Of a DNA stretch of 64,000 nucleotides, positions 16,693-53,760 are shown one piece after another; position 1 is the first letter of the stretch, and each line of letters opens with the position of its first letter. The notes under the pieces are model-generated. The model was not told the DNA's origin. It searched no databases and saw only the letters and a program-made list of their open reading frames with translations. The position numbers were made by a program, and so were the translations under genes. This DNA is from Phytophthora colocasiae (Eukaryota; Oomycota; Peronosporomycetes; Peronosporales; Peronosporaceae): NCBI GenBank assembly GCA_018806915.1, contig JAGKQI010000033.1, positions 930,001 through 994,000 of the forward strand. The letters run 5' to 3'.

Positions 16693-17511
16693 ATGAGCCT
16701 CCAAGACCTCGCTCCGGACAACACGAAGCGTGCCCAGACAACTGCGCTCAACATCTTCAATGAGTTTCTGGAAGTGGAGAAAACGACTATGGTCTTTGTG
16801 CGCTCTATTTTTCGTGATGATGACACCGGCGCAGCTTTCAGGAAGTTGATGGATCGCTTTGCTATGTTTCTCGCGTTCTCGAACGGGAAAAGCGGCGAAC
16901 CGCGAAAGCGCAATACTGTGATGAGCTATTACCGCAATGTGAAAAACTGGTTCCTGGATGAATTTCCCCAACAACGTCCTCTAGTCGAGCATCAGCTGCT
17001 GAAAATGGGTCGAATCCTTGAGCGCCATTGTTTGAAGCGGCTACAAGGCGGCACAGTGACCAAAGCTCCCCCGTGTACGAAGCAAGATTTGAACGTTTTG
17101 ATGGATGGCATCTATTTTGAAGCAGCCCAGGCAAAAGATTACCAAGATGCCGCTCTACTAGCTATCATGTGGTATGCTTTCGGAAGAGCGTCTGACCTTA
17201 CCTTTTTCAGAAAAGTAATTTGTCAGTTTCTGCAGCTAATGTTCTCTTTATCCGCCTTATCCGCGCTAAGACATCTGAAGAGCAAGGCCTGTCACTCTAT
17301 CCCGATGAGAGCTCGTTTGTTACGTGACCTCTTCATGCTATTGCAATGGCACTTGCCATGCAAGAGTTTCCAGTGTCCTCTCTGTTGGACCTAAAACAAC
17401 TGTCAGCAGTGGAAAAGGATGGCATCCAGTTGGTACTTAACAAGAGTCCCCTGGCTGAGGTACTTCAGCACGGTAGTGATGGTAATGACAGAGATGATGT
17501 CACACCGGTTG
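16693..17511 (+). pseudogene. Crypton C tyrosine recombinase, 5' half, degraded
   Basis: Starts with MSLQDLAPDNTKRAQTT and keeps the N-terminal domain and the first catalytic box YAFGRASDL (R165). After FFRK the frame shifts by one base near 17213. The shifted frame continues with the Lys box IRAKTSEEQGL, then meets a TGA at about 17326-17328 where Crypton B has Cys (FLTCPLH), and goes on to ...DDVTPVV until G1 interrupts it. The H-x-x-R and Tyr parts are not in the window. So the copy was probably already damaged, or decayed after G1 landed. Confidence 0.8.
17508..17511. repeat. Presumed left target-site duplication of G1 (GTTG)
   Basis: The four bases before the TGTAAC start of the G1 LTR. 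The partner copy would be next to the missing 3' LTR, outside the window, so this is an expectation only. Confidence 0.3.
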
Positions 17512-17971
17512 TGTAACGGGGTTACACGTACAAGTGGTTATACCACTTGTAACTCTAACAGTTAGGATAACTGTTAGAGGTTGGAAATGGGCCTCAGACC
17601 TTGGTGAGCTGTACACACCAATGGATACATGGGCGAACCACATTATTGGGTGGTTCGTGTGCATTTGTGCATATTATTGGTAGAAAGTAACGGATTTCTA
17701 CCAATCACTGAGCAGAGTTTCTGCCAACCACACGTTGGCAGACCCTTTAGAAATAGATAACAAACAGTTTTAGGAGGTCCATAATTGGCTTATGCCAAAT
17801 TCAATAACAGTTCTCATTTTACGGTATTTTGCAGTTTAATTTAGTTATATTTGATTTAATTATACTTATTTAAATAAGTATACTTAAATTAAGTCTATTC
17901 TAATTGAACGCTTCCTCATACACGTAAGCGCACGTGTACGCCATCTAATAGGTCTAGGTAGACCCATTACA
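17512..17971 (+). repeat. G1 5' LTR (460 bp)
   Basis: Begins TGTAA and ends TTACA, a 5-bp perfect terminal inverted repeat, with a primer-binding site 2 nt further on. It holds several perfect dyads, for example a 12-bp stem with 3-nt loop at 17553-17579 and a 22-nt AT-rich palindrome around 17863-17884. The end is inferred from TTACA and the PBS because the second LTR is absent. Confidence 0.75.
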
Positions 17972-17973
17972 CC

Positions 17974-17991
17974 TGGTAGCACTTTGTAGTC
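17974..17991 (+). other. G1 primer-binding site
   Basis: TGGTAGCACTTTGTAGTC starts 2 nt after the LTR end. TGG is the complement of the tRNA CCA tail. The tRNA was not identified. Confidence 0.6.
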
Positions 17992-18060
17992 CGTCCCACG
18001 ACCGACTGCTGTTCGTTCGTATGGAGTCATACGAACGCGGGGTAGAGAACTCCCCAATGG

Positions 18061-19005
18061 ATGAGGGATCCGCTGACCCCTCACATGTCCGTGACGCGCA
18101 CGGACTGTGCCCACCTGTCAGATCCAGAGTGGGAAGCTTTCCAAAGACTTTCACAAGTCATTGGAGAGGCAGCGGTAGCGACGATGCTTCGTACGCTATC
18201 GCCGACAGAGCAACACGGTGTTGCTCTGGGGTACATTGTTAAGGAGCAACGAGATGTTGCTGCCTCGGTGGCTTCCCCTAAGCCACGCGTGGAGTCGTTG
18301 AAACTCCACGTGAGTACCTACACGGGGAAGGAGGACGAGACCCTCCTTCGTTGACTTGTCGAACTTGACACAGCCGTTGCGGCTCGACGTATCGTCGATC
18401 CGATGTCGAAGGTCGCGTTCGCCATGTCATGTCTTGGCGGACGTGCGAGGAGTTGGGCCTATGGGCGCCGACTCTCGGATCCTACGTGCTTCGGCACGTA
18501 CGAGGTGTTCAAAGAGGAGCTCAAGCTTGCGTTTGAGCCCCCGAAGAACGAGTTCAGATCGAGAGCGGAGTTTCTCGATCTGCAGCAGGCCAAGGATGAT
18601 GTTCACACCTTTGCCCAGCGTGCTCGATACTTGGTATCGAACATAGTGGCCAACCCGATCGACGAGGCGACCAAGGTCGTCACGTTCATGAAGGGACTAA
18701 GAGATGGTCCCGACAAAACATATCTCTTCCGAGAGTATCCGAATACTCTCGAGGAGGCGATCAGCCTTGCAATGCAAGAGGAGTTTAGCCGGCGTCAAGC
18801 TAAACTCCATGCGAACGCGCCGAAGCCGGCGCGTCCTGTTGTGAAGACGGGAGGACCGGAACCTATGGACCTCTCGAGTGCTACGACCGCTGGTCAACAG
18901 CAGCGTAGGAACAGCAAGGTTCGATGTTACAAGTGTAGTAACATCGGTCACTATGCACGTGAGTGCACAGCGGGCGGGCGTTCAAAAAACGCCAAGGACC
19001 AGTAG
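18061..19005 (+). pseudogene. G1 gag, with one in-frame TGA
   Basis: About 314 codons from ATG 18061. The capsid part runs through VAFAMSCLGGRARSWAYGRRL and the FKEELKLAF region typical of Gypsy Gag, and ends with one zinc knuckle, CYKCSNIGHYAREC (C-x2-C-x4-H-x4-C), which binds the element's RNA. TGA at 18352-18354 interrupts ETLLR-LVELD, where relatives usually have Trp, so a single G-to-A change from TGG is the simple explanation. An inner ATG at 18403 could restart translation. Gag would assemble cytoplasmic particles carrying the RNA. pol overlaps the last 43 nt in the -1 frame. Confidence 0.8.
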
Positions 19006-22000
19006 GCGCTGGGCGTCCTACTGGTGATGCAGTCTCGCGTGTCGAGCTTGGACACGCGACGATGAGGACTGCTGCCCCCAGCGAGAAGGTTTCTCGCTGT
19101 AAGCTGCAAGATGACAAGCCAAACCTTGTCATCCTGAACGTGATGTCGAAGAGACTGAACTCTCTTCGTGCCCTAGTGGACTCGGGCGAGTCGAACAACT
19201 TTGTTCGACAGGGAAGTCTTCGAAGGCTTGACTTCGAAGAGGCCGACACGCCTCGCGGCGTGTTGGAGGTGTGGTTGGCAACAGGTGCCACCGTGAGGAC
19301 TGAGAAGCGCGTAGTCCGTGTGCGCTTCTCTTACAAACGAAGGACGTTTGTAGAATATCTTATCGTCTTGAATCTAGACGATAAGTTCGACTTGGTATTA
19401 GGCATGCCGTGGCTTGCACGGCATGACCCGGTGATCAACTGGGAGAAGCGTACGCTCGTACGCTTCAACAACGCATGCGCGACAGAGAGCGATGGCCCTG
19501 TCAGTGCTGCACATGCACCAGGCGGTGCATGTGATTCCCCAGTTGAGGCAGCAGCGTCCGCCGCTGCCTCCGATCGCCGCCGGCAACCGCCAGCGACTCA
19601 GGGAGTCGTTGGGAGAAAATGTGTGTCGACTCAGAAATCTGAGCCGAAGGGTCGCGGTCACATGAGTGATGGTCAGGTGAATGTGAATCACCTGACGCGT
19701 AAACATCTGAATGATGTTTGTCACATGAGTGATGGTCAGGTGAATGCGATTCACCTGAGAGAAGGTAAAATACCGGTATTACCGGTATCCTTGGAGGTAC
19801 TTCAAGCCCCCAAGGGTCGCGCCGACGACGTCGCGTCAACTCTGGGAGTTGACGAAGCAAATAATATTCGGGGAACCGAAAGGCGTGCGTCAGCTCTGGG
19901 AGCTGACGCCACTGGCGCGTCGCTGCTAGTTCTGGGAACTAGCGATCGTGCATCAGCTCTGGGAGCTGACGATATGTGTACAAGCGAACACTCGCTAGCG
20001 CAGGAAGCTAGCGAGAGCACGTCGACTCCGGGAGTCGACGATGCGGTTGCTTCATCCGCTCCCGGAGCGGATGGAGGCGCAACGGTTCAGGGAACCGACT
20101 GCGCGGCAGGAGGTGCTGGCGGTTGCAAACGCCCAGCACCCGAACAACCTGCGTGCTCACGTGCAGCAGCGCTGCACGCGATGAGCGGCACTCAAGCAGG
20201 GCTTGATAGTGCGAGTCAGCGGAAGGAATCCGCTGACGATTGCGATAACGTCCCGTCCAAGGTGCGATGCCTTGGACGTGGAGCACCTGGAGTCGGGCTC
20301 CATGGTAGATCTTCGCGGCGCAAGCTCAGGGAGCTGCGCGAGTCTCAGTCCGGGACTGAGACGGGTGTATCTGCAGTGCAGACACCGAGTGTCGAGACGT
20401 TGAATGTCTTGACACGTACTGGTACTGGGTTACAGTACCAGAGGATACGGTTGGAGAATCCGCCGACGAGTGCGTCGGCGTTGACCGCACTTCCAACGAT
20501 GAGTTGGAAGCGCTTCGCACGAGACTTGTACGATGGACGCATCGATCAAATTTGCATTCTCTCGGATATCGAGAGAGTGGATCGCGAAGCCGAAGAGCTG
20601 AAGCAGCTCGTCGTCGATGGGATCACTGAGGGTGATGACTCCCTCAGTGCGAAGACTAAGAAGCAGCGCTTCGAGGAGCAAAGTTGGGACTCGTTGAGGT
20701 CGAGTCCCTACTACGAAGTTCTGCGGGAGTACAAGGATGTACTCCCGGACGAGATTCCTTCGGAGCTTCCGAAGGATAAGGGCGTACAGCACGAGATTGA
20801 TCTCGTGCCGGGCACGAAGTACTGTGTTACACGGCAGTGGCCACTGCCGCGTGAACAAGTGCAAGCGATCGACGACTTCTTTGAAAGTCGTCGTCTTGCC
20901 GGTCAAGTGCGGGAGGCAAAGTCCCCGCACAGTGCCCCAACGTTCTGTGTTAAGAAACCACAGGGCGGCTGGCGCATCGTTCATGCGTACAACAAGTTGA
21001 ACGATGCGACGATACCAGCGCAGACGCCGATACCGCGAAAAGATGTTATCATCGATTCGATGGCCTTGAGCACTATCTTCAGTGCTCTAGATCTGCGTGA
21101 TGGATTCTATCAGATCCTCATGCGTGAGAGGGACATCCCTCTCACTGCGGTAAGCACTCCAAGCGGTATGCTTTGGGAGTGGGTCGTCATGCCACAGGGG
21201 CTTAAGAACGCCCCTGCGACGTTCAATAGATGCGTGACACATCTATTGCGCTCGGTGCGCGACTTCGCACCGAGCTACTTCGACGACGTGTTCGTCCACA
21301 GCCGGGCTGTGAACGGGAAGACGGACATTGAGATGCACAAGGTGCATCCCCGGAAGCTGCTAGAGCTTATGAGGAAACATAAGCTCTATGCGAACCTGAA
21401 GAAGTATATCTTCGGGGCGAGCGAGATACCCGTGCTGGGGTGTCTCGTGGGGAAAGACGGCGTGCGCCCTGACCCAGAGAAGGTCAGAGTGATCAATGAA
21501 TGGCCCACGCCATCCAATGTGAAGGAACTGAGGCAGTTCCTTGGGCTTGCCACGTACTTGTGCAAGTACGTGGAGAACTATGCGGGCAAGATTCGCCCGT
21601 TGTCACAGCTTCTTAAGAAAGAAGCTGAGTGGATTTGGACGACCGAGTGCGAGGATGCATTCGGTGCAGTCAAGCAGGGCTTGACTGAAGCGCCGATCTT
21701 GGCCGTGGCGGACCAAGATCGTCCATTCCACGTAGTGTGTGATGCATCCGACTTTGCAATCGGATGTGCATTGATGCAGCACGATCACGAAGGGCGTGAT
21801 CGTGTGGTCTACTATCAATCGCGTCAGCTGAAGCCAGCTGAGCGTAACTACCCCGTACATGACAAGGAGCTCCTTGCCATGAAGTATGCACTCGCAAAGT
21901 TCCGAGTGTATCTACTTGGGAGTAGCCCGTTCGTGGTCTATACAGACCACGCATCATTGCGGACGGCGATTAAGTCGCCGCACATCTCGCAACGTATGGC

Positions 22001-22970
22001 GAGATGGTTGTCCTTCTTCGCGGAGTACAACTTCCGGGTGGAGTACAAACCCGGAAGACTCAATGTAGTGGCCGACGCGTTATCGCGTCGACCTGACTAT
22101 GCGGAGACGGTCGACGCCAACGCAGTTGGCGTCGTGAGGACAAGTGTGCCGTCGTCAACGTTGATTAACGACGTGAAGAACGCGTATGCAAGGGATGCAG
22201 ACGCGAAGGGGCTGCTGGAGTTCCTCGCAGCACCTTCCGACGTGGCACGTCGGAAGCTAACCCCTCATCTTCGAGCTCGTGTACACCGCTATCGTGTACA
22301 CGAAGGCCTACTGTTGTACAGTGCAGTAGACGACAATGCGGATCGCATTGTCGTTCCGAATGATCATGACCTCCGGTTGAGGATCATGTTCGAGTATCAC
22401 GATGCCCCCACGGCAGGGCATCCGGGTCGTGAGAAGACATACACTCTTCTCACGCGTGACTTCTACTGGCACCACCAGTACAAGTGGGTGCGCAAGTACG
22501 TACGTGCTTGCGAGGTTTGTCAACGCGTGAAGCCTGCGCCGTTCTCGCAGGCTCCTCTTCAATCACTTCCGACTCCGTCGGAGTGTTGGCAGTCCATGTC
22601 CATGGACTTTGTCTTCGGTCTTCCGCCAGACAGCAAGCGGAGGACGGGCATCGTTGTCTTTGTGGACCGATTCAGCAAGATGGTTCATCTTGCTGCCGTC
22701 CCGGCTACTGTTACAGCCGCGCAGACTGCGCGACTGTTTGTTGACATGGTGTTCAAACACCATGGCATGCCGCTCGACATTGTGTCGGACCGTGATCCAC
22801 GCTTCACAGCGCGGTTCTGGCAAGAAGTGTTTACACTTCTTGGTTCACAGTTATCAATGTCGACTGCGGATCATCCGCAGACGGACGGACAGACCGAACG
22901 TGTCAACCGTGTACTGGGTGACACGTTGAAGAGCTACGCTCACTCGTTCCCGCATTGGAGCGAGTGCTTG
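18963..22970 (+). CDS. G1 pol: protease, reverse transcriptase, RNase H, integrase (interrupted by G2)
   Basis: Order: retropepsin with ALVDSGESNNFV (DSG, where DTG is common) and LVLGMPWL; a long variable linker with repeats; reverse transcriptase with the active site YFDD at 21277-21288; RNase H with VVCDASDFAIG, YTDHASL and a LNVVADALSR end; integrase with an H/C zinc finger (GHPGREKT ... ACEVCQR) and the catalytic D, D, E in SMDFVFG, SDRDPRF and GQTERVN. It ends in ...WSECL at the G2 insertion and resumes with PMAEFAINNS at 53761. Expressed as a Gag-Pol fusion by -1 frameshift. Apart from the insertion, no stop was seen in this 4-kb frame, so G1 pol was intact when G2 landed, although gag has a TGA. 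No chromodomain is visible in the part present. Confidence 0.92.
18984..19025 (+). promoter_or_regulatory. G1 programmed -1 ribosomal frameshift signal
   Basis: A AAA AAC at 18984-18990 is a canonical X-XXY-YYZ heptamer and is phased correctly to the gag frame. After a 7-nt spacer a 9-bp hairpin follows: ACCAGTAGG at 18998-19006 pairs with 19017-19025 around a 10-nt loop. The gag stop TAG is at 19003-19005, inside the hairpin. Slipping back one base enters the pol frame. Confidence 0.85.
19658..19757 (+). repeat. 63-nt in-frame direct repeat in the G1 linker
   Basis: Two copies start at 19658 and 19721 with TCACATGAGTGATGGTCAGG. They encode HMSDGQVN twice. Each copy also holds its own dyads, so the repeat adds to the hairpin pattern. 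Confidence 0.8.
22967..22970. repeat. G2 target-site duplication, left copy (CTTG)
   Basis: CTTG before the TGTGGTG start of the left LTR equals CTTG at 53757-53760 after the right LTR. Removing G2 and one copy restores the G1 integrase frame across ECL-PMAEF. Confidence 0.92.
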
Positions 22971-24251
22971 TGTGGTGGAGCGGATCTGCCAAAATCTCGT
23001 TAGGGCAGGTCCCGATCACCACTTGCGCCCAGACACCGACTAACGGAGGGGGTCCCCCGATGATCCGTGATCTAGCTGTGTGTAGTATTCACCTTGTGTA
23101 CCCGTCGGTAGGCGGGTTACGCTCTTCCAGGTGACTTCTGAAGGTGTCTTGTAGGTCGGAAGAAAGTCTTGCGTGACGCAGGGGTTTGAGGTAGCGTGGA
23201 AGTACTTCACTCCACCTCGGGGTACTTGATCCCGGTCGTAGGCGAGTTCTCGAGCCTTGATCCGGGTGCCTGATTCTTGATCCAGGTCTTCCAATAGTCC
23301 AGTATTAGGGATTCGGTCCCTTCCTTTACGTTGCTTGCCGCTTCCGATAGCGGGGGTCTTGAGAGGGCGGATTCGACGGGATCCTTAGGCTAAACAACCA
23401 AGTCCTTCCGATCCGATGTATGCACTTAAAGGATAGTTCACTAGATAGGGCAAAGCTGGCCAATATATTATCCAGACTTAACCGCTATACTAGGTCACGT
23501 ATCCTTACCTTCCTGACGCTTGTAGGGCCAATGTAGTTCCCGGTTCCAGGCGTAGCGAAGACACTTGAGTAGTTCAGGGCAAATTCGATTCTGTTTATGG
23601 TTATTCCTATGCCTACTAATCCCATCCTGATTTACTATCCTACGATCACATGACACTGGCTACAGAGCTGATCCCTAGCTTGTTTCCCCTAACCCTGATC
23701 TTGAGCCGATTCCGTACTTAACCGAAGCTTGATCTCGCACTTAACCGAAGCTTGATCTCGCACTTAATCGGGGCTTGATCGCGGCCTGATCCCGCTTGGT
23801 AATCCTTCAAAGAATCCGGATCAGGCCACCAGAAGAGTCTGCGTCGCGCCTGGGGCTGGATCTCGTACTTAAACGGGAGAAGATCACTGCGTGATCCTGC
23901 GTGATCCTGCTTCGTTGCCGCCCGGGGAAGTAGGATCATGCTGTTAGAGGCTTCGGGGTGCCGGGGTAAGCCGATCGTGTTCACTTGGGACCCCGTCATC
24001 GTTGATCGCGCAAGAACATCCTTGATTCCCCCATTCTTCCTCCGGCAGGATTCGGATCACCCACGAACACCGCTCCACTTGCTCCTCCGCCGGTGTCTCT
24101 GTTGCCTGTTCCCCGGCGGGACCCATCGTACCTTCGTCTGATTCGACCCAGATCTGGGGATCACAGGTCCCCCCTGTCGCTCGTTCCGACTCTATTCGGG
24201 TTCGTGGCTGATATTGTCTCTCCGGGAAAAATTCTCGTCCGCTTCACCACA
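22971..24251 (-). repeat. G2 left LTR (3' LTR in coding sense), 1,281 bp
   Basis: Starts TGTGGTGGAG, ends CTTCACCACA, an imperfect terminal inverted repeat. It carries two 23-nt units CGAAGCTTGATCTCGCACTTAAC at 23723-23768; the other LTR has four. Confidence 0.93.
23723..23768. repeat. 23-nt tandem repeat in G2 left LTR, 2 units
   Basis: Units at 23723-23745 and 23746-23768, the second ending AAT. The matching array in the right LTR is 53167-53258 with 4 units, accounting for 46 of the 62 bp length difference between the LTRs. Confidence 0.9.
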
Positions 24252-24260
24252 TCCGCCCCC
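24252..24260 (-). other. G2 polypurine tract
   Basis: Minus-strand GGGGGCGGA directly before the 3' LTR in coding sense. This is the expected place for the plus-strand DNA primer of reverse transcription, and supports the minus orientation of gag-pol. Confidence 0.7.
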
Positions 24261-24285
24261 AGCACGTAAGTTGAGCTGCCGCAGC

Positions 24286-24292
24286 TCACTTC
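24286..24292 (+). promoter_or_regulatory. Candidate initiator for the G2 antisense ORF
   Basis: TCACTTC fits YCAYTYY, 63-69 nt upstream of ATG 24355. The same spacing as host genes suggests an own promoter just inside the LTR. Confidence 0.35.
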
Positions 24293-24354
24293 GGGTTTAT
24301 TTCCACATTCACCACCTGGAACACAAGTCGTTCAAGTACCACCACTCCCTTACG

Positions 24355-27201
24355 ATGTCCGATCCGCCTCCCTCGCCCCCTTTGACGCCGAGAACGCCCT
24401 CGAGCGAGCACTCGATCCGATCCGACCGATCCACGGCCTCCCGCTTCTCAACCCCCGGGGTAAACCCTGAGCTGGTCACCTTGCAAGCGAGACTGGCCCA
24501 CAGCCAACGGATGCGCGAAACCTTGAGTCGCGATCGGGACCACCTGGACGACACCGTTCACCGGTTGCGATCCGACATGGAGGATATGGAGCGCTTCCGG
24601 GACGACCAGGCGGAGGAGATCTTGCGGCTGAACGCCGAAATCGCTCGTCTGCGGTCGGGAACCGGAGATGTTATCGGTGGGGACGCGATCGCCGCCTTGC
24701 AGGATCAGCGGGCTCAGCACGACGCCGAACGGCGGGAGTCTGAGCAGCGAATGGCTCGGATCCAAGCGCGGCTAGACTCTGCGCTCGAGGATCTCGACTT
24801 CCGGCTGGCCGAACTTCGCATAGCCGGGGAGACGAAGATTGAACTCCGGGATGAGCTTCAGGATCGCGAACGGGAGCTCGCCGCCGTGCGTCATGACCTG
24901 ACCCTCACTCAGCGTAGCCTTGATCGCTGGCAGAGGAACGATTCCTCCCAAGGTCCACAAGCGGCCATGGCCATGCCCGCTGATCAGACTCGCCCTACGG
25001 CAGAGGAGGCTCGGTTGAGGTTGGAGTTGACGCGGACCCAAGCGGAGTTGCTCGCCGCTCGAGCCGAAGTCGCGTACCTGGAACGCGAGGCAGAGGATCA
25101 CCAGGCTGAACTGGCTCGGGCACACCTCGCCTTGGAGGACGTATCCGCACCGGATTCTCGCGCCCCGCCTTTGGATGCAACCGCCGATGCCGCCGCCGTA
25201 TCCAGCCTGGAGCAAGATCTGGTAGACGCCTTGGGAAATCTGGAAATAATCCAGCACGACCGGTACCAGCTCTCCGTCCAGCATCGCGCCGCAATTGCCG
25301 AGCGGGATCAGGCCGTCGCAGACCTGGATCAGGCCCGCCTCGACCGGGATCAGGCGATGCAAGATCTCAATCGAGTCACGGTAGATCGTGATCGAATCCA
25401 GGTCGACCTGGACGATGCCACCCAAGATCGTTTATCGGTCCTCGCAGACCTTGACGTGGCCCGTTCCGCCCGGGATGCGGCGACACAGGAACTGGACCAG
25501 CTCCAGCGACAGAACGCGTCGGCCCTCGCTGACCTCGACCAACTCCAGCGACAGAACGCGGAGCTTCGACAGGCTCATCAAGAGCTGGACGCTGATTATG
25601 CCGAAGCCGAACAGCAGCTGCATCACGCCGAGGATTCCTCCGCTCGGTTGTCCTCGTGGATCGCGGATCGACGGGCGGCTCGTGCCACCAAAAGATCTCG
25701 AAGCGCCTCCGCTTCCCCGGCCGTTCCTCCTTCCTCACGCAAGCGTCCAGCTCGGAGCTCCTCAGCTCCCCGTGATCTAAAAACTGCAGCCACCGAAGCT
25801 CCCGGATCAACCCAGCCTGTCACACCAACGGTGGTTCCGACCCCGGCAGGATCAACGGCGAGCCCGCTGGATCTGTTGGCGGACCAAGCTTCTGGGCAAG
25901 CCGGAGGGGAGGAAACCGACACTCCAGCCCCTGATCCGACCCCAGCACCGACGGATCAGTCCGGATCGCTCCCCGCCGAGGGTGATTCGCCGGATGAGGA
26001 AGAGGAAGACTCCGACTACGATCCCCAGCACCCATTCTCATCGCCGTCCGAAGAGGACGAAAGTCCAGAACCCAGCAATGGAACTAGTTCTGAGGCCGAA
26101 TCGGAACGTTCCAACGAGGCGGAGGACTCCGAGGAGGACGAGACTCTACACATGGGCCGTCAACGGTCTATCTCGACGCACCGGCGCGAGTCCGGTCAGG
26201 TTCCGAGAGCCGGACCTTCTGGCACTCGTGGATCGGGGTCTCCGGACGGCTCAAGCCCATCTCCGGATGGATCAGGCCCGCCGTCTCCAGGATCACCCCC
26301 GGGTTCCCCGTCACCGCCGCCACCTCCTCCCGGCGGTTCCCCGCCCCTCGGGCTCCGACCACCCCTGTTCCCGGTCGCCTCTTTCATTCCAGGGTACGAT
26401 CGGCAGCGTACCTTCGCGGCCGCTGACATCGTACCGTGGGATCCGCAGGTGATCGGGCAGTATTCGATCGTGGGTCTGATTGCCAGTTCTCTGGGCAAAC
26501 GGTTGTTGATCCCTTCGGGTTGGCTGTACCCTTCCCAGATACAGGCCGAGCCTGCACCGACCCCCGGCACCGAATACCTCAACGAGTTGATCACGGGCGT
26601 GAACGTGCTTGATCTGCTGGCTCCGGAGCCGTGGAACGACTTCGCGAACCCGGGTCCCCTTACGTTCGACCTCGATTTGCACGAGAGGGAGGGAACACCC
26701 CTCGCGGCCGTGGCCGCCACCTATCGCGTCCTGGAGGAACGGCACCGTCAAGCATTTTGGGAGGCCACCCATAACTTCGAGATCACCTCTGCCATGCAAG
26801 ATGCGGATCTCGAACTGCAGCGGTATTATGTTGCTCGCAAGGCCAGGCGGAGTCGGGCTGGGTCTGCTTGGCGCCAGTTCCTTGCCTCCTTCCCCGCCAT
26901 AATGCGCGACCAGTGGTTCGATCTCGACATCCTGTTGGATCCGTTCTTCCTTCACCTCTCCATTCCGGGAGTGGACGTGGTTCGTTGGTATCCCGGCGTG
27001 GTCTCTCGGCGTGCCAACCGGGCGGATCCCACCGCGAACGTCCCAGAGCCGGCGAACCTGATCAAGGCTCTGGAGGAGTGTGACGAGGCGGATCCGTGGC
27101 GTAACCAGTATCGGCAGGACCCGGTCAACCATCCCGCTACCAGGATCCCCCGCCTTATCGGCAAGTTCAATCCTCCTCCCGCTGGGGCCGCTTCTCCGTA
27201 A
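24355..27201 (+). CDS. G2 antisense ORF: coiled-coil / acidic protein of unknown function, intact
   Basis: 948 residues, antisense to gag-pol. I do not recognise a known family. Order: Ser/Pro-rich N-terminus (MSDPPPSPPLTP); a very long coiled coil, about residues 50-450, rich in Glu, Arg, Leu and Asp heptads, with near-repeats of the DRDQA type; a basic KRSRSAS/SSRKRPARSSS stretch that could direct it to the nucleus; a Pro/Thr and strongly acidic region (EEEEDSDYDP); a Pro-Gly-Ser hinge; and a folded-looking C-terminal domain from about 720 to the end, with HRQAFWEATHNF. That last motif has counterparts in the G3 (ALWERTHW) and G4 (QAFWEETHW) antisense proteins. The frame is free of stops over 2.8 kb, so it was under coding selection. 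It ends tail-to-tail with pol, 355 bp apart. The frame is open upstream into the LTR, but the first ATG outside it is at 24355. Confidence 0.8.
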   Translation: MSDPPPSPPLTPRTPSSEHSIRSDRSTASRFSTPGVNPELVTLQARLAHSQRMRETLSRDRDHLDDTVHRLRSDMEDMERFRDDQAEEILRLNAEIARLRSGTGDVIGGDAIAALQDQRAQHDAERRESEQRMARIQARLDSALEDLDFRLAELRIAGETKIELRDELQDRERELAAVRHDLTLTQRSLDRWQRNDSSQGPQAAMAMPADQTRPTAEEARLRLELTRTQAELLAARAEVAYLEREAEDHQAELARAHLALEDVSAPDSRAPPLDATADAAAVSSLEQDLVDALGNLEIIQHDRYQLSVQHRAAIAERDQAVADLDQARLDRDQAMQDLNRVTVDRDRIQVDLDDATQDRLSVLADLDVARSARDAATQELDQLQRQNASALADLDQLQRQNAELRQAHQELDADYAEAEQQLHHAEDSSARLSSWIADRRAARATKRSRSASASPAVPPSSRKRPARSSSAPRDLKTAATEAPGSTQPVTPTVVPTPAGSTASPLDLLADQASGQAGGEETDTPAPDPTPAPTDQSGSLPAEGDSPDEEEEDSDYDPQHPFSSPSEEDESPEPSNGTSSEAESERSNEAEDSEEDETLHMGRQRSISTHRRESGQVPRAGPSGTRGSGSPDGSSPSPDGSGPPSPGSPPGSPSPPPPPPGGSPPLGLRPPLFPVASFIPGYDRQRTFAAADIVPWDPQVIGQYSIVGLIASSLGKRLLIPSGWLYPSQIQAEPAPTPGTEYLNELITGVNVLDLLAPEPWNDFANPGPLTFDLDLHEREGTPLAAVAATYRVLEERHRQAFWEATHNFEITSAMQDADLELQRYYVARKARRSRAGSAWRQFLASFPAIMRDQWFDLDILLDPFFLHLSIPGVDVVRWYPGVVSRRANRADPTANVPEPANLIKALEECDEADPWRNQYRQDPVNHPATRIPRLIGKFNPPPAGAASP

Positions 27202-27556
27202 GTCGTGCTAACTTCGATCACCTGCAGCAAGGCTCGGGGCTTCCCCCCGAGTTCGGATTCGGAACCCCATCTAGGGCCGTTCTGCATTCTTCCATCTCCA
27301 TTCGTAACTCTCATAATCTCCACTCGTGATTCTCGTAATCTCCATTCCCACAGTCATTTCATCGTACTCCATCATTTTTGAGAATGTGATCCCCTTTCAT
27401 CTCCATCTCGACATCCCGGATCACCATCTTCCAACGTCAAATTCCCTACGCACATGCATATACACAAATACAAAACTCTCGCTCTGATCTGGATTCTCCT
27501 CCACATCAGCTCCTTCGATCACGGCGAGGCAACCCTGTCACCTCGCCTGACTTCCC
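27202..27556. other. G2 convergent 3' region between antisense ORF and pol
   Basis: 355 bp between the two stops. Pyrimidine-rich and AT-rich, probably holding both 3' ends; no gene seen. Confidence 0.6.
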
Positions 27557-30500
27557 TTACACTTCTTCATGCGACTGCATCACGCCGAACCGGTTCCGAT
27601 TAGCGTGGTCACGTAGGAACGCGCTCAATATGGCCCCACAGTTAAGATCAGCTTCGTCGACCCACGTTGGCTCATCATAACCGACCCAGTGCACCAGGAA
27701 TTCACGATAGATCCGGCCGTAGCGAGTTCGTTTCCCACTTCGCATGCCCGAGATCCGTTCGACTTCGTACTCATCAGCATCCAGATCTGGGACCCAACTG
27801 TCCTCCGGAAGGAGGATCTCATCGAAATCGAGCCGATCTGCTTCATCTACCTTCAACTCGATCCGCGGTCGATCTGGGAAATTCCGTACCAGCTTTAGCT
27901 TAGAAACATGAACCACCGGGAAGATATGGTAATCAGAGCCCGCGATCTCCAGCTTGATCGTGAATTCATTGAGCTTCTCTGCAACACGGAACGGGCCGTG
28001 CCAAAGGTGGGCGAGTTTACGCGCATACCCCTCCTTCACACGATCTAGATATAGCCAAACTCGTGATCCAGCTTCGATCTGATGCGGATCGACATCCTCA
28101 TTATGCCGATCGGCTCGGTCTGCAATCGCCTCTCGTAGCCTAGCGTTGACCTGTTCTCGCGACTGCTGGTAGTATCTCTGAACCCGATATCTCCACCGTC
28201 TTGGATCGCGATCGTGGCGTCTGGTCGATCCGATCGGGATCGTTGCTTTCAACGTCGATCTCGGATCCCATCCGTGTACCAAATAGTGAGGGGTATCTCC
28301 CCGAACCCGATCGTGAGCCGTGTTAATAGCGAACGTCAGTCTCTCCGCATATTCATCCCAGTCCTTTTGATCGAGATCTTGAACATACATCTTGATCGCC
28401 CTAGTGGCCGTTTGCACCATCCGTTCTGCAGTCCCATTGGCCTGTGGTCGGTAGGCCATCGTTGCCCGTTGTCGCTGCCCCAGGATCCTATTGAACGATC
28501 TGAAGAAGTCGGACATGAAGCCCGGTTCTCGATCGTGCCTGATCATCTCGCTAGCACCAAATCTGCGGAACACGCATTCTTCATAAGATTCCGCGACGGT
28601 CTGGGCCGATCGGGAGGAACTAGCCTTTGCGATCACATATCCCGTGAACAGATCTACCCAGATCAGTAGTTCAGTATTGCCTTTGTTGGATCTGGGCAGA
28701 GAGGGTATGTGATCCATCGCTATGATCTGGAATGGGTATGTCGCTTGCAGATTCCCAGGCGACTCGCCTCGGATCGTGGGTCTCCCCTTTCCGGTCTCAC
28801 AGTCTACACACTCGCCTACGTATCGCTGCACGCTCCGATATAATCCCCTCCAGTGGAAATGATCTCGGATCCGCTGATAAGTGCGTCCGATCCCTTGATG
28901 TCCCCCTTCCAGAGTCGTATGGTAGTGGTGGAGGACATCCTGCTGTAGCGTTTCTGGGACCACAAGTCTCATCAGGCGATCGCGATCACCACTTGATCTC
29001 GGCCCTGGTGGGCAGTAAAATAGCAGATCTTGTTCGTCTACCTCGTACTCGGAGGCGATCTTGGCGTAAGATCCAGATTCGGCTCGAGTAAGATCCGCGA
29101 TCTGCCCAGCCAGGTACTTCTTTAGTCCTGCGATCCAGACCTCCTCGTTCTGGGCTCGCCTGATCCGATCAACCCGCATCTCTCGGATCAGTTCCTCTCG
29201 CAGGACAGCGGCACCAGGTCGCGCTCGGGCTGCACACGTGGCTACGGCCGACACTTGCACCGTTCGATCTTCAACTCGAGGGATCAACACCTCATTAAGT
29301 CGATTCAGGGTGATCAGATCGCATCGATCTGCCTCCTCGTGGACTTCGATCCCGCTTCCTCGTTGCAGCGCGGCACTCGCCAAGCTATCTGCACTCCCAT
29401 TCCAGTCTCTCTTCACATGGACAAGCTCGTGATCTCCCCAATTCCGCAAATGATCCAGCACTTTCTGTTTCAATAACGTCAATCCTGGCGCCTTACAGTC
29501 GATCTCGCCCCGGACTTGTCGGATCACCAGGTTCGAATCGCCACAAACGACCAAACGGCGGCGTTCTAACTGTGCGATCATGCCAAGACCTAGCAAGAGT
29601 CCGCGGTATTCCGCTTCATTGACAGTAAGACTCTCCGCATAGTCTGATCTAGCCTTGATCACTTTCCACTCCGGCAAACTCCACACGATCGCGCTGAAAG
29701 CGCCTCCTCCTCGTTTCACGCGTGCCGAACCGTCGAAACTCACTACCCATAGCTCCTCACCTGGATCTACGGTGGGAATCGGCATCTGGATCTTACGTTT
29801 TGGTTCCTTCTGTGGCGCGATCGCGATCAGGGCTTCGTCGATCTCCGATCTAGGCGTTATATTAGCTGCAATCGCCCCCAGTATCTCATCCTCTCCCTTC
29901 GTACACTTCGTGATCTCGAGTGTCCATGGGGACAGTAGAGCAGACCATTGTCCCAGACGTCCTTGGAGGCCGGCAGACTTGAACAGCCAGGCAAGCGTGG
30001 AGTGTCTGGTTAGGACCTTGATCCGACGTCCCACCAACAGGGTGCAGTGTAGATCCAAGATCCGAAGTAGAGCCAACACCTCCTTTTCGGCAACATTATA
30101 GTTTAGCTCGTTCGTCTTCAAGGTTCGGCTGGCAAACGCGACCGGGTGGTAGATCTGGTCGTGTTCCTGCATTAGTGCGGCGGAAATCGCCCAGTCACTG
30201 GCATACACGATCACCACGGGTAACTTCGTCATGTCGAAGTGACGAAGGATCGGGGTCGACGCGATCTTGGTTTTCAAGGCTGTAAACGCCCTGTGTGCCC
30301 TACCCCACCTTTCGTCGCCAGCTCTTTGGGCCAGATTGGCTTCGACCTTGCTTGAACAAGGGGGAGGCATCGCCCCCAAGTCAGGATCCGGTGTACTATC
30401 CCCTTTTTGAGTCGAGGTGTCGGGTGATCCATCCTGATTCGACTTAAGCGCAACGGGATCTCGATTGATCGGGTCCGTACTATCCATGATCTTTCGAAGA

Positions 30501-31636
30501 TCTGGTCGCTTCTTCAGTTCTGCGAACTCCACCTCACGTAGTTCATATAGGACCGATGCATATAGACTATAGTAATTCAAACTTCCCAGGAACGATTGCA
30601 TGGATCGGAGTGACCCAGGGAATGGTAGGTCCGTCAGAGACTTCAGGTCTTTCGGGTTTGCCTCCAATCCGTCGATCGACACTTTGTGTCCGAGATATTC
30701 CACCTTATCCATGCCCCAGAAGCTCTTCACCACACTGATCGAGAGATTCCACTTATCACAGGCCTCCAATAGGTCTTCCACCCGATCGCACATTTGATCC
30801 CATGTTCCAGCCGTGATCAAGATATCGTCGATGTATGATCTCCGTCCTAGAACCGACGGGCGACCAGGATCCTCCGGGATTCCTGATTCAAACACATCTG
30901 CAGAGTCTTCCGTATTCCCTGACTGGGAGATCTTCAAAAATCCATATAGGGCGTTGTCCACAAGACGTTGATAGATCTGAGGGGCGTTCTTCAGCCCGAA
31001 CGGCATGCGATTCCACTCGAAGAGGCCGAACGGGGTGATGAAAGCTGAGATCGCGCGAGCTCGATCGGTCATTGATACGACCCAGAATCCACTCGCCATG
31101 TCTAATGAACAATACCACAGAACCTTGTCAAGATCTTCTAACAGGTCATTGATCAGAGGCATTGGGTAGATCATCAGCCTCGTGAGACGGTTCACCAGCC
31201 GATAATCGATACATAGTCGGATATCTACGCCGTTCTTCTTGATGATCACCACGATCGGAGACGCCCATGGCGATGTCGATGGCCGAATGATCTTGGCAGC
31301 TAGGAGTCCTTTGATAAGATCCGATACTTTCTCGCGGAACTGTGGCGCCACCTTTCGGACTCGTTGTGCAATCGGCTTTGCATCACCTACGTCGATATCG
31401 CATATAACACCCTTGGCCGCTGGAGGAAGTGCGTTTCCTTTCCCGATCAGGAGATGTCGCTTCTGCCAAATAATCTGTCGAAGTTTCTCGATCTCCTCCG
31501 GGGTAGCCGATCCTGGATTTCCTACCTGCAGATCTTCGATCCTGACTTCTTCAGTGGTGGAGATCTGGATCTCTGGTACTACTGCGAGATTATCGCCTAG
31601 ATCTTCGGCCGAAAAATCGCCACTTTCATTGGCCAA
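27557..31636 (-). CDS. G2 pol: RT, two RNase H domains, integrase, chromodomain
   Basis: About 1,359 codons. RT (residues ~85-330) has LCIDYRLVN, CSLDMASGFW (D179), MPFGLKNAP and the active site YIDD (268-271). The first RNase H (~480-600) has VIVYASDWAIS, with Tyr in place of the first catalytic Asp, so it is probably inactive. The second RNase H (~650-780) is of the cellular type, with D, E, D, D in SFDGSARVK, NEAEYRGL, CGDSNLV and GSADSLAS. Integrase has a GGHQGIGRTY...CVDC zinc finger and D, D, E in AMDHIPS, RHDREPGF and NGTAERMV. A chromodomain ends the protein (EYEVERI ... YREFLVHWVGYDEPTWV), which usually directs integration to modified histones. The frame joins its protease part only after a 1-nt shift at 31626-31636. 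Near LNYYS the usual KFIEDLPVIA stretch is missing. Confidence 0.93.
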   Translation of the reverse strand: MANESGDFSAEDLGDNLAVVPEIQISTTEEVRIEDLQVGNPGSATPEEIEKLRQIIWQKRHLLIGKGNALPPAAKGVICDIDVGDAKPIAQRVRKVAPQFREKVSDLIKGLLAAKIIRPSTSPWASPIVVIIKKNGVDIRLCIDYRLVNRLTRLMIYPMPLINDLLEDLDKVLWYCSLDMASGFWVVSMTDRARAISAFITPFGLFEWNRMPFGLKNAPQIYQRLVDNALYGFLKISQSGNTEDSADVFESGIPEDPGRPSVLGRRSYIDDILITAGTWDQMCDRVEDLLEACDKWNLSISVVKSFWGMDKVEYLGHKVSIDGLEANPKDLKSLTDLPFPGSLRSMQSFLGSLNYYSLYASVLYELREVEFAELKKRPDLRKIMDSTDPINRDPVALKSNQDGSPDTSTQKGDSTPDPDLGAMPPPCSSKVEANLAQRAGDERWGRAHRAFTALKTKIASTPILRHFDMTKLPVVIVYASDWAISAALMQEHDQIYHPVAFASRTLKTNELNYNVAEKEVLALLRILDLHCTLLVGRRIKVLTRHSTLAWLFKSAGLQGRLGQWSALLSPWTLEITKCTKGEDEILGAIAANITPRSEIDEALIAIAPQKEPKRKIQMPIPTVDPGEELWVVSFDGSARVKRGGGAFSAIVWSLPEWKVIKARSDYAESLTVNEAEYRGLLLGLGMIAQLERRRLVVCGDSNLVIRQVRGEIDCKAPGLTLLKQKVLDHLRNWGDHELVHVKRDWNGSADSLASAALQRGSGIEVHEEADRCDLITLNRLNEVLIPRVEDRTVQVSAVATCAARARPGAAVLREELIREMRVDRIRRAQNEEVWIAGLKKYLAGQIADLTRAESGSYAKIASEYEVDEQDLLFYCPPGPRSSGDRDRLMRLVVPETLQQDVLHHYHTTLEGGHQGIGRTYQRIRDHFHWRGLYRSVQRYVGECVDCETGKGRPTIRGESPGNLQATYPFQIIAMDHIPSLPRSNKGNTELLIWVDLFTGYVIAKASSSRSAQTVAESYEECVFRRFGASEMIRHDREPGFMSDFFRSFNRILGQRQRATMAYRPQANGTAERMVQTATRAIKMYVQDLDQKDWDEYAERLTFAINTAHDRVRGDTPHYLVHGWDPRSTLKATIPIGSTRRHDRDPRRWRYRVQRYYQQSREQVNARLREAIADRADRHNEDVDPHQIEAGSRVWLYLDRVKEGYARKLAHLWHGPFRVAEKLNEFTIKLEIAGSDYHIFPVVHVSKLKLVRNFPDRPRIELKVDEADRLDFDEILLPEDSWVPDLDADEYEVERISGMRSGKRTRYGRIYREFLVHWVGYDEPTWVDEADLNCGAILSAFLRDHANRNRFGVMQSHEEV

Positions 31637-32097
31637 ATTGGGTCTGATCGGCGTTCTCGATCCCTTCAGGAGATGTCGGATCGGGTTCGTTCGTTAATGG
31701 ATCAGGGAGTCTATCGTCCTTGGCCGTCAGGATCGGGGTGTCCTCAACCGTGGGGCCGGCGTTAGCGTCGGATTCATGTTTGGTCTCGTTTTTAAAATCT
31801 GGTTTTTCTGTTTTTACCTCGATCTCTTCTTCGCATGTCCGATCTGTCCGATCTGGGGCCTGATCTGGCAAGCTCTCATTCGTCTCAGTCTCACCGCCCC
31901 CAGCTTCGCCACTCGGGGTCCTGTCGGAACTGATCATAATCGGTGGGGTATCCATGGGATCCGGTTGGGGGTCGATGAATGCGACCTTGACTTCGACCGC
32001 ATCGGTTGGTAATCGAGGTCCTAATGTCGATATTGGCGTAGGATCAGGATCGGTCTTGGTCGTTCCACCTCGGCGGAGTATGGATCGTGGCGTAACG
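31626..32097 (-). pseudogene. G2 protease-RT linker, distal piece (cut off from its protease by G3)
   Basis: Reads VTPRSILRRGGTTK ... QTQFGQ and stops at 31626, overlapping pol by 11 nt in another frame. In G3 and G4 this linker is continuous with RT, so a 1-nt indel near 31630 is likely in G2. Crossing the G3 insertion (and dropping one TSD) joins it to ...SVERPTY at 49643. The region is acidic and Pro/Thr-rich, typical of a flexible linker. Confidence 0.75.
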
Positions 32098-32101
32098 TAG
32101 G
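32098..32101. repeat. G3 target-site duplication, left copy (TAGG)
   Basis: Matches TAGG at 49639-49642 on the other side of G3. Removing one copy with G3 joins the G2 linker frame (PTY-VTP). Confidence 0.92.
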
Positions 32102-33997
32102 TGTCGCGAAGTCGGTGCAACTTTTACCGCGGTGCAGGGGCGTACAGTGAACCTGGAAGTGTGACTACCGGTAATTATACCAGAGTCGCACAGCAAGGTG
32201 GGCGTGTGTTACCTTGTGCTGTCCTCGTAGGTTCGTTGTCTTGGTAATTAGACCCTCGCCGGGGTCGTGAGAGTGTTGGTGAGAGTGAGGGTTCCTTGCG
32301 TAGGCCGTCGGATGTCCTTCTGGTCCTCACAGGAGCGCTTGGGAGTCGAACGTTTTCCGGTGAACACTTGTGTACACCAGAGATTTCTGAAAGCAAAAGA
32401 GAAATTAATACAATGGGAAGTCCAGTAATTAGACTTCCGAGATAACCGCAATATAGAGTTCCGATATACAAATATGTAGCTGCTCTTATTCTTTCCTGGC
32501 CCTTGAGCAGTGGGCTAGTTCTCCAGGTCAACTAGGGAAATGTTCACCAGACACCTGGTCTGTCTGGTATTCCCGTAACTTTCGCGCACCACCCTCTAAT
32601 ATATAGAGGGAAAATAAACCAATACACTATCAGTTATATAACAGTCTACCGAGCGTCTTGAGAGCGACCGTCTAGCTCCCAAAACCTGTCCAAACGTACA
32701 ATATGAAATGGGCTACCGCTAGAGACAAGACAAACGACCCAACTAGTAAATGGAATAGGTGGGTCCTCTCAGGTCTCTACGTTACGCTGATCTCCACCTA
32801 AAGGGGCTTGATAGGTGAGAGATCACACGACTCAAAGCTTTGTCGTGGCCTTACACTTCCGAAGAACCGACGAATCGACCTTGGGGTTGTAACGCAAATT
32901 TAACTCGGGGGTACCGATCAAATTGAACTCTGGTTATCTATCTCGTATCTCTCTGTCTTCTGTCTTCCACATTCTCATATACACTTGGTCTCAGTATAAC
33001 TCAGGAACTTTCACTTGGGCTCACTATGGTAGTCGATGCTGCAGATCTTGTCGAGTCGACACTTAATGATGTCATTACAGGGATGAGCAGGTTGCGTTTC
33101 ACTTGATTGCGTGAGGTCGTGTTGGGTACACTTGGTTTCAGTATGGGGTGGACTTCAGAGTGTCAAAGTCTGGTATCCTGTTCATCAGGGTCTGGAATCA
33201 TGTGCGTCGGAGACATGTTCATCGGAACCATGTACTCCAGAATCATGTACATCAGAGTCATAAATACCAAAGTCGTGACACTTGGGTCTGTTCATCGGAG
33301 TCTTGTACGTCGGAGTCTGTTCATCGGAAACTGGTAAATGTCTGGAATATTGCTTGTATAAGCCGGACACATCAGACTTGTTTACCAGAATCATGTTCGT
33401 CAGACTCATGTACGTCGGACTTCATGTACGTCGGACTTCATGTACGTCAGACTCATGTACGTCAGACTTCATGGTGTGATATCAGAGCTTCCATACGTGA
33501 TACCAGAAATCCATGAATGTTTTTAGGGTGCGGAGCACGTATACTACAACGCACGAAGTCCAGTTGGGATATGCGCGGGGTGCGCTACGTCCGGTGCGCG
33601 ATACTTGGTATCTTGTGGGTATAACTGTATTCCTTGAACCATCATCGTCACACAGAACGGCAACGGGATGAGGTTTCTCAGAGATACATTCTTCTGAGAG
33701 ACTTTCTGCCAACCTTTAGGCACTCATCGTCGGGGAAAGTCCGGCGATCAGACTGAGTGTTATTGTCTCTCGGAGTTTGTGCACTTTTCCGAGGAACACT
33801 TCTGATCTCTTGGGCCCCTTTGCAGTACAGGTGAAGGTTAATATATATAGCAGTTTTCTTCCACAGACCCATCATATTGTCACACGGGACATAACCTCGT
33901 CCCACATCTCCCTTCCTCCCACAATCCAGTATATGTCCAATCACATCACAGCGTAACGTCCATATCCACTCAAAAAATCGTAATTAGCAACGTGTCA
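32102..33997 (-). repeat. G3 left LTR (3' LTR in coding sense), 1,896 bp
   Basis: Starts TGTCGCGAAG, ends CGTGTCA. Same length as the right copy at 47743-49638. It contains a word array at 33181-33476. The start and the block around 'CTGCTCTTATTCTTTCCTGG' resemble the G4 LTR, so G3 and G4 are related families. Confidence 0.95.
33181..33476. repeat. Degenerate array of TGTACGTCAGACT-type words in the G3 LTR (also 48822-49117)
   Basis: Words such as ATGTACGTCGGACTTC, TTCATCGGAGTC and ATGTACGTCAGACTC follow one another at 14-18 nt steps. The most regular stretch is 33400-33476. Similar CAGAC/TCTGG words also occur in G3 gag. Confidence 0.75.
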
Positions 33998-34008
33998 ACC
34001 GCCCCTCC
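33998..34008 (-). other. G3 polypurine tract
   Basis: Minus-strand AGGAGGGGCGGT abuts the 3' LTR in coding sense. Comparable tracts abut the left LTRs of G2 and G4. Confidence 0.7.
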
Positions 34009-34253
34009 TGGTCATAATTCGTCAGTGCGGAACTTTCTCCAAACTAAGCATCATGGCCAGGACAGTACGTCAGAGGTCCCGTGAACATAGTGTAGCTGTG
34101 ACGCTCTCAAAACTTCCGGGGTTTCAAAGTCTCTGGTGTCCTGTCGCTCAATCTGATTCCATCAGACTCAGAAATAGCCAACTGTCGTATCCCACAAACG
34201 GCCACATCCCGATTTCCTTTCTGACACACAAGTCAGAAGAAGATCCAGCAACT

Positions 34254-43421: not shown

Positions 43422-43427
43422 TTTAAC
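43382..43427 (-). promoter_or_regulatory. G3 programmed -1 frameshift signal at the gag stop
   Basis: Minus strand: G TTA AAC (43427-43421) followed at once by the gag stop TAG (43420-43418). pol is open in the -1 frame here. A two-part hairpin follows: inner TCGGAT (43409-43404) with ATCCGA, GGGG loop, and outer GCCCG with CGGGC (to 43382). GUUAAAC is a known slippery variant. The same heptamer plus TAG ends G2 gag. Confidence 0.75.
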
Positions 43428-47650: not shown

Positions 47651-47721
47651 CTTGAATATAGACGCTTGACAGGAAACCCTCTCCTCAAACTCTCTTAGAT
47701 CCGGTGATATCACGATACCAA

Positions 47722-47740: not shown

Positions 47741-47742
47741 GT

Positions 47743-53756: not shown

Positions 53757-53760
53757 CTTG
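53757..53760. repeat. G2 target-site duplication, right copy (CTTG)
   Basis: Identical to 22967-22970. Confidence 0.92.

What the first reader, a model, noticed from the sequence alone, without database searches (positions are those of the whole stretch)
17512..22970. A retrotransposon written as an unbroken string of short hairpins
From the first base of the G1 LTR to the last base before G2, and again from 53757 to 54060, the DNA is a run of perfect inverted repeats: stems of 6-12 bp, loops of 2-14 nt, about one per 25-40 nt where I read closely. By a rough count, random DNA should give a 7-bp stem with a loop of up to 14 nt about once per 1.4 kb. Stem sequences all differ, so this is not a spread palindrome family. 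It runs through gag, protease, RT, RNase H and integrase without breaking conserved motifs, so codon choice has been bent to make pairing. It is absent from Crypton C, G2 and G4 at each border. This could be an ordered RNA genome fold for packaging, protection from or feeding of small-RNA pathways, control of ribosome speed, or the trace of a replication error mode that copies short stretches back in inverted form. I know of no described element like this.
Basis: seen in the sequence. Interest (0 to 1): 0.95.

Follow-up and report, generated by a model that had tools for sequence, protein, structure and literature searches.

The report
Retrotransposon written in short hairpins
A jumping element in a water-mould genome is written from end to end, genes included, as about a hundred and fifty short perfect hairpins that natural selection seems to keep, which suggests that the fold of its RNA or DNA matters alongside the proteins it encodes.

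Summary
The window copy of this Ty3/Gypsy element (17512-22970) holds 100 perfect hairpins with stems of 7 bp or more, 61 of 9 or more; the other 58.2 kb hold 77 and 13. In pol, stems of 9 or more number 50 against 0.65 in codon-shuffled controls. A structurally complete copy has them from LTR to LTR and almost none in its flanks. Sister families (62% amino-acid identity) show a weaker excess; two distant Gypsy elements of the window are near chance. Positions turn over between families.

Copies differ two to four times less in stems than outside, and more in loops. Stem-breaking variants, like amino-acid changes, are rarer among shared than private variants, pointing to selection on pairing, though some mutational effect remains possible. 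Five loops are flipped in single or few copies, a known mark of template switching. Folding excess is 35% sense, 45% antisense; the highest viral figure I read is 23.4%. Function is inferred: a structural shield. None of eight literature searches listed an earlier description.

The parts
17511..22966 (+). Array of perfect short hairpins over the window copy (100 with stem >=7 bp, 61 with stem >=9 bp)
17512..17971 (+). 5' LTR (TGTAAC...TTACA), itself made of hairpins
   Evidence: 98.9% match over 461 bp to the 3' LTR of L031; its 5' LTR lies inside a longer 96.6% match; hairpin lists
17972..18060 (+). Leader after the LTR; begins near a TGG-type primer-binding stretch (label recalled, not tested); holds one 10-bp hairpin
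   Evidence: sequence, hairpin list
18061..19005 (+). gag; start inferred from the reading frame; one in-frame stop in this copy
   Evidence: frame; Retrotrans_gag and CCHC knuckle found on the part 18403-19005
18963..22970 (+). pol reading frame (open in this copy; the frame runs on into the inserted element to 23003)
19164..19457 (+). aspartyl protease domain (RVP_2)
19461..20432 (+). linker between protease and RT, with repeated hairpins of the type CTC-tgg-GAG
20949..21443 (+). reverse transcriptase (RVT_1)
21711..22028 (+). RNase H (RT_RNaseH)
22362..22877 (+). integrase: H2C2 zinc-binding and rve core
22967..22970 (+). CTTG, target-site copy left of the insertion
22971..53756 (.). 30.8-kb insertion (ends TGTGGTG...CACCACA) that splits the element; not part of the array
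53757..54072 (+). Continuation of the same element copy (element positions 5528-5844), 5 hairpins with stem >=7 bp

Best explanation
This is a young, multicopy Ty3/Gypsy LTR retrotransposon of an oomycete close to Phytophthora (host inferred from protein matches), and its whole nucleic acid (LTRs, untranslated regions, gag, pol) has evolved into a chain of about 150 local hairpins of about 9 bp. Shown: the array, its limits, its graded presence in related elements, its turnover of position, and lower variation in stems than around them. Supported: selection at the level of the element removes stem-breaking changes, and what is kept is the density of hairpins rather than particular ones. Inferred: the array works as a structural shield like the genome-scale ordered RNA structure of some RNA viruses. 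Dense local self-pairing keeps the transcript (and, because pairing is Watson-Crick on both strands, any antisense transcript or single-stranded cDNA) from forming long duplexes with other strands and from being reached by guide RNAs, while hairpins too short for Dicer-type enzymes are no target themselves. Template switching at the hairpins during copying occasionally flips loops.
For: Enrichment over codon- and dinucleotide-preserving controls. LTR-to-LTR extent with nearly empty flanks. Mean folding excess on 350-nt pieces: 35.4% sense and 45.1% antisense for L031 (22 pieces each), 34.1% for the window copy (15 pieces), 8.0% and 8.7% for families B and A (14 each), 1.0-1.8% for three other window stretches. 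Variants in 29 copies with stems defined in L031: singletons per site 0.067 in stems, 0.123 outside, 0.181 in loops; shared variants 0.020, 0.048, 0.110. Shared synonymous variants against opportunity: 0.15 stem, 0.53 outside, 0.66 loop. Private variants of copies with a stop or frameshift: stem/outside 0.76, N/S 1.59; shared variants: 0.30, N/S 0.54; Fisher P 0.004. Subfamily copy L051 against L031: stems differ 1.0-1.5%, outside 4.5-4.8%, loops 7.0-8.7%. Family-B subfamilies at 10.5% difference (L036, L041) keep 14 hairpins against 5.2 expected and gain 9 against 2.4, with 5 Watson-Crick double changes in 147 ungapped pairs. G1 hairpin positions are not shared with the sister families beyond chance in 2 of 3 comparisons.
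Against: No sense-RNA signature in the fixed sequence: single mismatches inside stems that are fixed in the copies are A.C 20, G.U 15, other 27, where an RNA stem should favour G.U; antisense folds as strongly as sense; no GNRA-type loop preference was noticed by eye (not counted). Pairing extends into 3-4 nt loops that cannot fold (24 of 54 inner pairs, about a quarter expected). G.U-forming variants exceed A.C-forming ones in stems (48:28 against 121:172 outside, P 0.0008), but the same skew is seen among private variants of broken copies (30:20 against 59:85), so it may be mutational. Private variants are already low in stems (0.76 in broken copies; 0.28, but only 4 against 25 variants, in the 4 copies without a stop or frameshift, whose N/S of 2.21 shows no sign of selection; broken against unbroken P 0.08), so part of the depletion may be mutational. 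New hairpins exceed expectation clearly in only 1 of 5 directed subfamily comparisons. Nothing here tests silencing, packaging or translation; the shield step is analogy.
Confidence: 0.5

Rival explanations
1. Mutational drive without function: the element's copying machinery switches template at short inverted repeats, makes arms match and so builds and keeps perfect hairpins, as proposed for nematomorph mitochondria.
For: Loops flipped exactly in place with arms intact: AAGGG to CCCTT (1 of 30 copies), AGC to GCT, GCT to AGC, GCA to TGC (one copy each), GCG to CGC (4 copies). 4 of 26 distinct clusters of 3 or more changes are exact in-place inversions and a fifth inverts the alternative allele. 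Pairing is equally strong on both strands and does not favour G.U. Palindromy runs into short loops. Arm matching and spacer inversion by template switching are described in yeast and RNA genes (PMC8604942, PMC8794818; passages read).
Against: Arm-to-arm copying should change one arm at a time: no excess of one-sided change (5 comparisons, P 0.06 to 0.97; the distant ones are saturated). Watson-Crick double changes are almost absent among close copies (1 in 30 aligned copies; none in six comparisons of L031, L051, L052 and the window copy), although single variants are many. By rough inference the visible flips (5) are far fewer than mutations in 18-base stems, but flips that change the protein may be lost. 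Stem depletion is stronger in shared than in private variants.
Confidence: 0.25
2. Selection for packaging or compaction: the hairpins bind Gag or compact the genomic RNA in the particle.
For: Element-wide, density-like trait; kept by selection.
Against: Stem sequences and loops differ, so no shared protein-binding motif is apparent; no preference for G.U in stems.
Confidence: 0.12
3. Mutational protection only: single-stranded cDNA folds into hairpins, stems are shielded from damage and loops exposed, and no selection is involved in today's pattern.
For: Singletons per site: loops 0.181, outside 0.123, stems 0.067; G>A and T>C are the transitions most reduced in stems (about 0.05 and 0.035 per site against 0.153 and 0.100 outside). 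The four copies without a stop or frameshift show low stem variation without a low N/S.
Against: Does not explain why hairpins arise (9 new against 2.4 in L036 to L041; 13-44 against about 2 between families) or the stronger depletion among shared variants than among private ones of broken copies (P 0.004).
Confidence: 0.1

Closest known systems
[quoted passage not shown] passages including parts of the abstract)
   Same: Hundreds of stem-loops over a whole genome, positions poorly conserved between relatives, paired sites less diverse than unpaired ones, folding excess above shuffled controls.
   Different: Here an LTR retrotransposon; stems are perfect and pair equally on both strands; the excess (35% sense, 45% antisense) is above the 23.4% called the highest recorded there; the LTR is included. 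My control was a dinucleotide shuffle (10 per piece) on non-overlapping 350-nt pieces, not the authors' program.
Coding palindromes in mitochondrial genes of Nematomorpha (PMC6649704; abstract, first part of Results and Discussion read)
   Same: Perfect inverted repeats inside conserved coding sequence, gained and lost between species, no excess of imperfect ones; template switching discussed.
   Different: There repeats of at least 15 bp were counted (mean 43, largest 142 bp), scattered; here arms are about 9 bp, packed about one per 50 nt over coding and non-coding sequence of a mobile element, with signs of selection on stems.
Template-switch homogenisation of inverted repeats and spacer inversion (PMC8604942 yeast, PMC8794818 RNA genes; passages read)
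   Same: Exact spacer inversion between intact arms, as in five events here.
   Different: There events at scattered sites; here on a background of an element-wide array.
Oomycete Ty3/Gypsy groups Chronos and Archon (PMC5348765; passages read)
   Same: Oomycete Ty3/Gypsy elements.
   Different: Those groups carry an additional archaeal-type RNase H. G1's pol gave no RVT_3 hit; that RVT_3 stands for this domain is recalled. Two other window elements do show RVT_3 and are near chance for hairpins. The word hairpin does not occur in that paper.

Membership tests
Ty3/Gypsy LTR retrotransposon | gag and pol with protease, RT, RNase H, then integrase, in that order | tested here: met
   Pfam hits in order on 18403-19005 and 18963-23003
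Ty3/Gypsy LTR retrotransposon | two LTRs with TG...CA ends and a target-site duplication | tested here: met
   L031: LTRs 99.8% identical over 462 bp, CAGTG on both sides (sequence); the window copy itself shows only the 5' LTR
Genome-scale ordered RNA structure | folding excess over the whole genome against order-shuffled controls | tested here: met
   35.4% mean over 22 pieces of L031, minimum 20.8%
Genome-scale ordered RNA structure | positions poorly conserved between relatives, paired sites less variable | tested here: met
Genome-scale ordered RNA structure | described in positive-strand RNA viruses, linked to host persistence | tested here: not met
   it is an LTR retrotransposon; hence 'works like', not a member
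Genome-scale ordered RNA structure | structure forms in RNA in the cell | not testable with these tools
   no probing data
Nematomorph-type coding palindromes | arms of at least 15 bp (the authors' counting threshold) | tested here: not met
   longest perfect stem 13 bp in L031
Template-switch hairpin evolution | spacer inversion with arms intact | tested here: met
Template-switch hairpin evolution | one arm copied onto the other | tested here: inconclusive
   no excess of one-sided change, but the distant comparisons are saturated
Chronos/Archon oomycete Gypsy | additional archaeal-type RNase H | tested here: not met
   no RVT_3 hit in G1 pol; equivalence of RVT_3 and that domain recalled

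The most novel reading that the evidence does not exclude
A transposon has evolved an element-wide, strand-symmetric hairpin code as armour against homology-dependent silencing: sense RNA, antisense RNA and cDNA all fold on themselves faster than they can anneal with each other or with guide RNAs, so a high-copy element stays out of the double-stranded RNA pathway. Selection acts on hairpin density as a trait in its own right, and one genome shows the trait at three strengths (G1; families A and B; distant Gypsy without it).
Probability: 0.28. Interest if true: 0.95.

Novelty: new variant of a known kind. Interest (0 to 1): 0.86.

Why it matters
It would be the first transposon I know of with a selected fold over its whole length, LTR included, and at a strength above the highest viral figure I read. 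Three strengths of the trait sit in one genome, so the open question of what genome-wide structure is for becomes testable: do small RNAs, expression, copy number and age follow hairpin density? The flipped loops also give a direct count of template switching in a retroelement.

Tried and rejected
Rejected: (1) a spread palindrome family: stem sequences differ, and comparing G1 with the window finds, besides itself, only short repeats inside it. (2) Base composition or codon usage: excluded by shuffles. (3) Repetitiveness in general: in pol, direct repeats of 8 or more number 18 against 7.1 and mirror repeats 11 against 6.5, against 64 and 2.1 for inverted stems of 8 or more. (4) An early count in which A.C mismatches far outnumber G.U counted overlapping helices; with unique hairpins they are 14 and 9 (one LTR pair counted twice). 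(5) Selection on sense-RNA wobble pairing, suggested, is not upheld by fixed mismatches, and the skew recurs in broken copies; unresolved. (6) Regular spacing: gap variation 0.89 against 1.01 at random, P 0.06. (7) Codon phase: third positions pair with positions 1, 2, 3 in 26, 22 and 15 hairpins; no strong rule.

Led nowhere: viral-contig scans with G1 and with a 13-sequence alignment found no relative, so no DNA of a named oomycete species was compared. Eight literature searches (the last listed only 2 papers) listed no earlier description; lists were capped, and subscription journals and preprints are mostly not held.

Limits: the broken/unbroken split is coarse (30 of 34 copies counted as broken by a stop or a short gap, some perhaps alignment effects; 4 not); one search was a first version in which all 34 came out as broken, so it separated nothing. 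Stems were defined in L031 (in 30% of copies; one search also in seven other copies, with like results). Stretches of a row with local identity under 88% or 90% were masked before counts. Copies are those the search scored best (30 of 40 full-length matches fetched; L002 and L003 replaced by their longer versions L031 and L032).
Full report
What was claimed and what is there. A scan confirms it: the 1-kb bins from 17 to 23 kb hold 8 to 23 perfect inverted repeats of 7 bp or more with loops of 2-15, the other bins 0 to 6. Without overlap there are 100 in 17512-22970 and 77 in the other 58,225 bp outside the element. Shuffling synonymous codons within the same protein leaves 5.9 of the 80 seen in pol, and 0.65 of the 50 with stems of 9 bp or more; the LTR and leader behave the same against dinucleotide shuffles.

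What carries it. Pfam places gag, CCHC knuckle, protease, RT, RNase H and integrase in Ty3/Gypsy order. The window's genome has 92.5 Mb in 105 contigs, and the search returned 40 full-length matches to a 1971-bp probe at 98-100% (a lower bound). The nearest listed proteins at 80% identity or more are mostly from Phytophthora species; the host's own name is not given. Copy L031 is structurally complete (about 8.3 kb, LTRs 99.8% identical, CAGTG on both sides), though its pol is split between frames. It has 3-7 hairpins per 250 bp over its length, including the 3' untranslated part, and one in the 1.5 kb of flanks seen. The window copy was split by a 30.8-kb insertion; its continuation at 53757-54072 carries the array again.

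Anatomy of the hairpins. In L031 (without the 3' LTR) the stem lengths are 41 of 6 bp, 36 of 7, 27 of 8, 47 of 9, 26 of 10, 12 of 11, 2 of 12 and 1 of 13. The fall after 9 is about what chance extension of a 9-bp stem would give (inference). Loops of 0-10 are enriched, with a weaker excess at 41-80, and hairpins with stems of 8 or more span mostly 19-28 nt. Hairpins cover 43.5% of the element at stems of 7 or more. Sense and antisense fold about equally. Fixed mismatches do not favour G.U.

Which elements have it. Searching with a P. ramorum relative found sister families in the same genome. In RT-integrase, stems of 9 bp or more number 27 against 0.46 in G1, 6 against 0.36 in L034 (family B), 5 against 0.30 in L035 and 6 against 0.20 in L033 (family A). 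The reverse-oriented element in L033 (969 bp) has none against 0.10. Four other window frames (two Gypsy, two without a Pfam match) have 1, 1, 0 and 0 against 0.20-0.27; at stems of 8 or more the frame 24214-27201 has 4 against 0.99. Folding excess shows the same grading. A tree puts G1, A, B and ten relatives together and two distant window RTs apart; inner branches near G1 are partly unresolved, and the two RTs are long branches.

Turnover and conservation. Hairpin centres of G1 coincide with those of L034, L033 and L035 in 1 of 16, 3 of 17 and 2 of 16 cases (expected 0.7-0.8; P 0.54, 0.04, 0.17); B and A share 2 of 17 and 2 of 16 (P 0.03, 0.02); the two family-A copies share 15 of 16. Between family-B subfamilies at 7.5-11.4% difference, 14-16 hairpins are kept against 5-8 expected when the same changes, matched for base and synonymous effect, are placed at random (200 simulations each, none reaching the observed). 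New ones exceed expectation clearly in one of five directed comparisons (9 against 2.4; the others 2-4 against 1.6-2.2). Between families 1-4 are kept against 0.4-1.1 (one of five at P 0.025), yet 13-44 new ones stand against about 2. In L036 against L041, the pairs show 133 unchanged, 7 single changes, 5 Watson-Crick double changes and 2 other doubles.

Selection or mutation. In the alignment of 30 copies, stems vary least and loops most, and synonymous shared variants are depleted in stems. If stems were merely protected from mutation, private changes of broken copies should show the full effect. They show a ratio of 0.76 to surroundings, against 0.30 for shared variants (P 0.004), while N/S falls from 1.59 to 0.54. 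Stem-breaking and amino-acid-changing variants thus seem to be filtered alike as copies breed. Against this, the four copies without a stop or frameshift have few stem variants (4 against 25 outside) with N/S 2.21, so low stem variation there is not matched by protein selection. The 0.76 leaves room for some mutational effect too. L051 repeats the stem/outside/loop pattern at 4.5-4.8% outside divergence.

Template switching. Among 71 hairpins with a variable loop, four carry a variant that is the exact reverse complement of the commonest loop, with arms intact. Of 26 distinct clusters of three or more changes, four match an in-place inversion with 4 bases on each side, and one more inverts the alternative allele. 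This is the spacer inversion described in yeast (PMC8604942, passages). Yet arm-copying is not visible and Watson-Crick double changes among close copies are nearly absent, so I take switching as a by-product or minor source.

Function. Viral GORS has the same set of features: many stem-loops, poor positional conservation, lower diversity at paired sites (PMC7642675, passages). The figures given there are 15% for SARS-CoV-2 and 23.4% for the highest; G1 has 35% sense and 45% antisense by a similar but not identical measure. I infer a shield against annealing and guide access. The strand symmetry fits that better than a sense-only RNA function, but no step of it is tested.

What is not explained. 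The G.U/A.C contrast between variants and fixed mismatches; pairing into loops too short to fold (24 of 54); the sharp 9-bp preference; and why loops vary even more than surroundings.

Verdict. A real, strong and, as far as eight literature searches can tell, undescribed property: a retrotransposon with an element-wide hairpin array that shows signs of selection. I rate it a new variant of a known kind because viral GORS and nematomorph coding palindromes exist.

Noticed in passing
L031 element positions 2237, 2731, 4351, 4683 (copies L004, L018 and others, L024, L028, L030): Loops of conserved hairpins flipped to their exact reverse complement in single or few copies (for example AAGGG to CCCTT): template-switch events.
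   Followed up: yes
window 22971-53756: A 30.8-kb insertion with ends TGTGGTG...CACCACA and 4-bp duplication CTTG splits the hairpin element; it seems to hold several elements itself.
   Followed up: partly
window 27557-31636 (-) and 60633-63992 (-): Two other Gypsy elements carry an RVT_3 match, the first also a chromodomain match just below the curated cut-off, as in the published oomycete Chronos group (PMC5348765; membership not tested).
   Followed up: no
window 19461-20432: The linker between protease and RT is rich in repeated hairpins of the type CTC-tgg-GAG (protein SALGAD-like); L032 shows breaks in its match there.
   Followed up: partly
window 17851-17892: An AT-rich 42-nt stretch of the LTR is its own inverted repeat at 90%.
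   Followed up: no
L033: Two elements of the same broad clade lie in opposite orientation; the reverse one (969 bp of RT) shows no clear hairpin excess, so the trait may be lost or absent there.
   Followed up: partly
stems of the copies aligned: C>T and A>G exceed G>A and T>C in stems, while the reverse holds outside; unexplained strand asymmetry.
   Followed up: partly
window 24214-27201 (+) and 43418-47761 (-): Long open frames (995 and 1447 aa) with no Pfam match.
   Followed up: no
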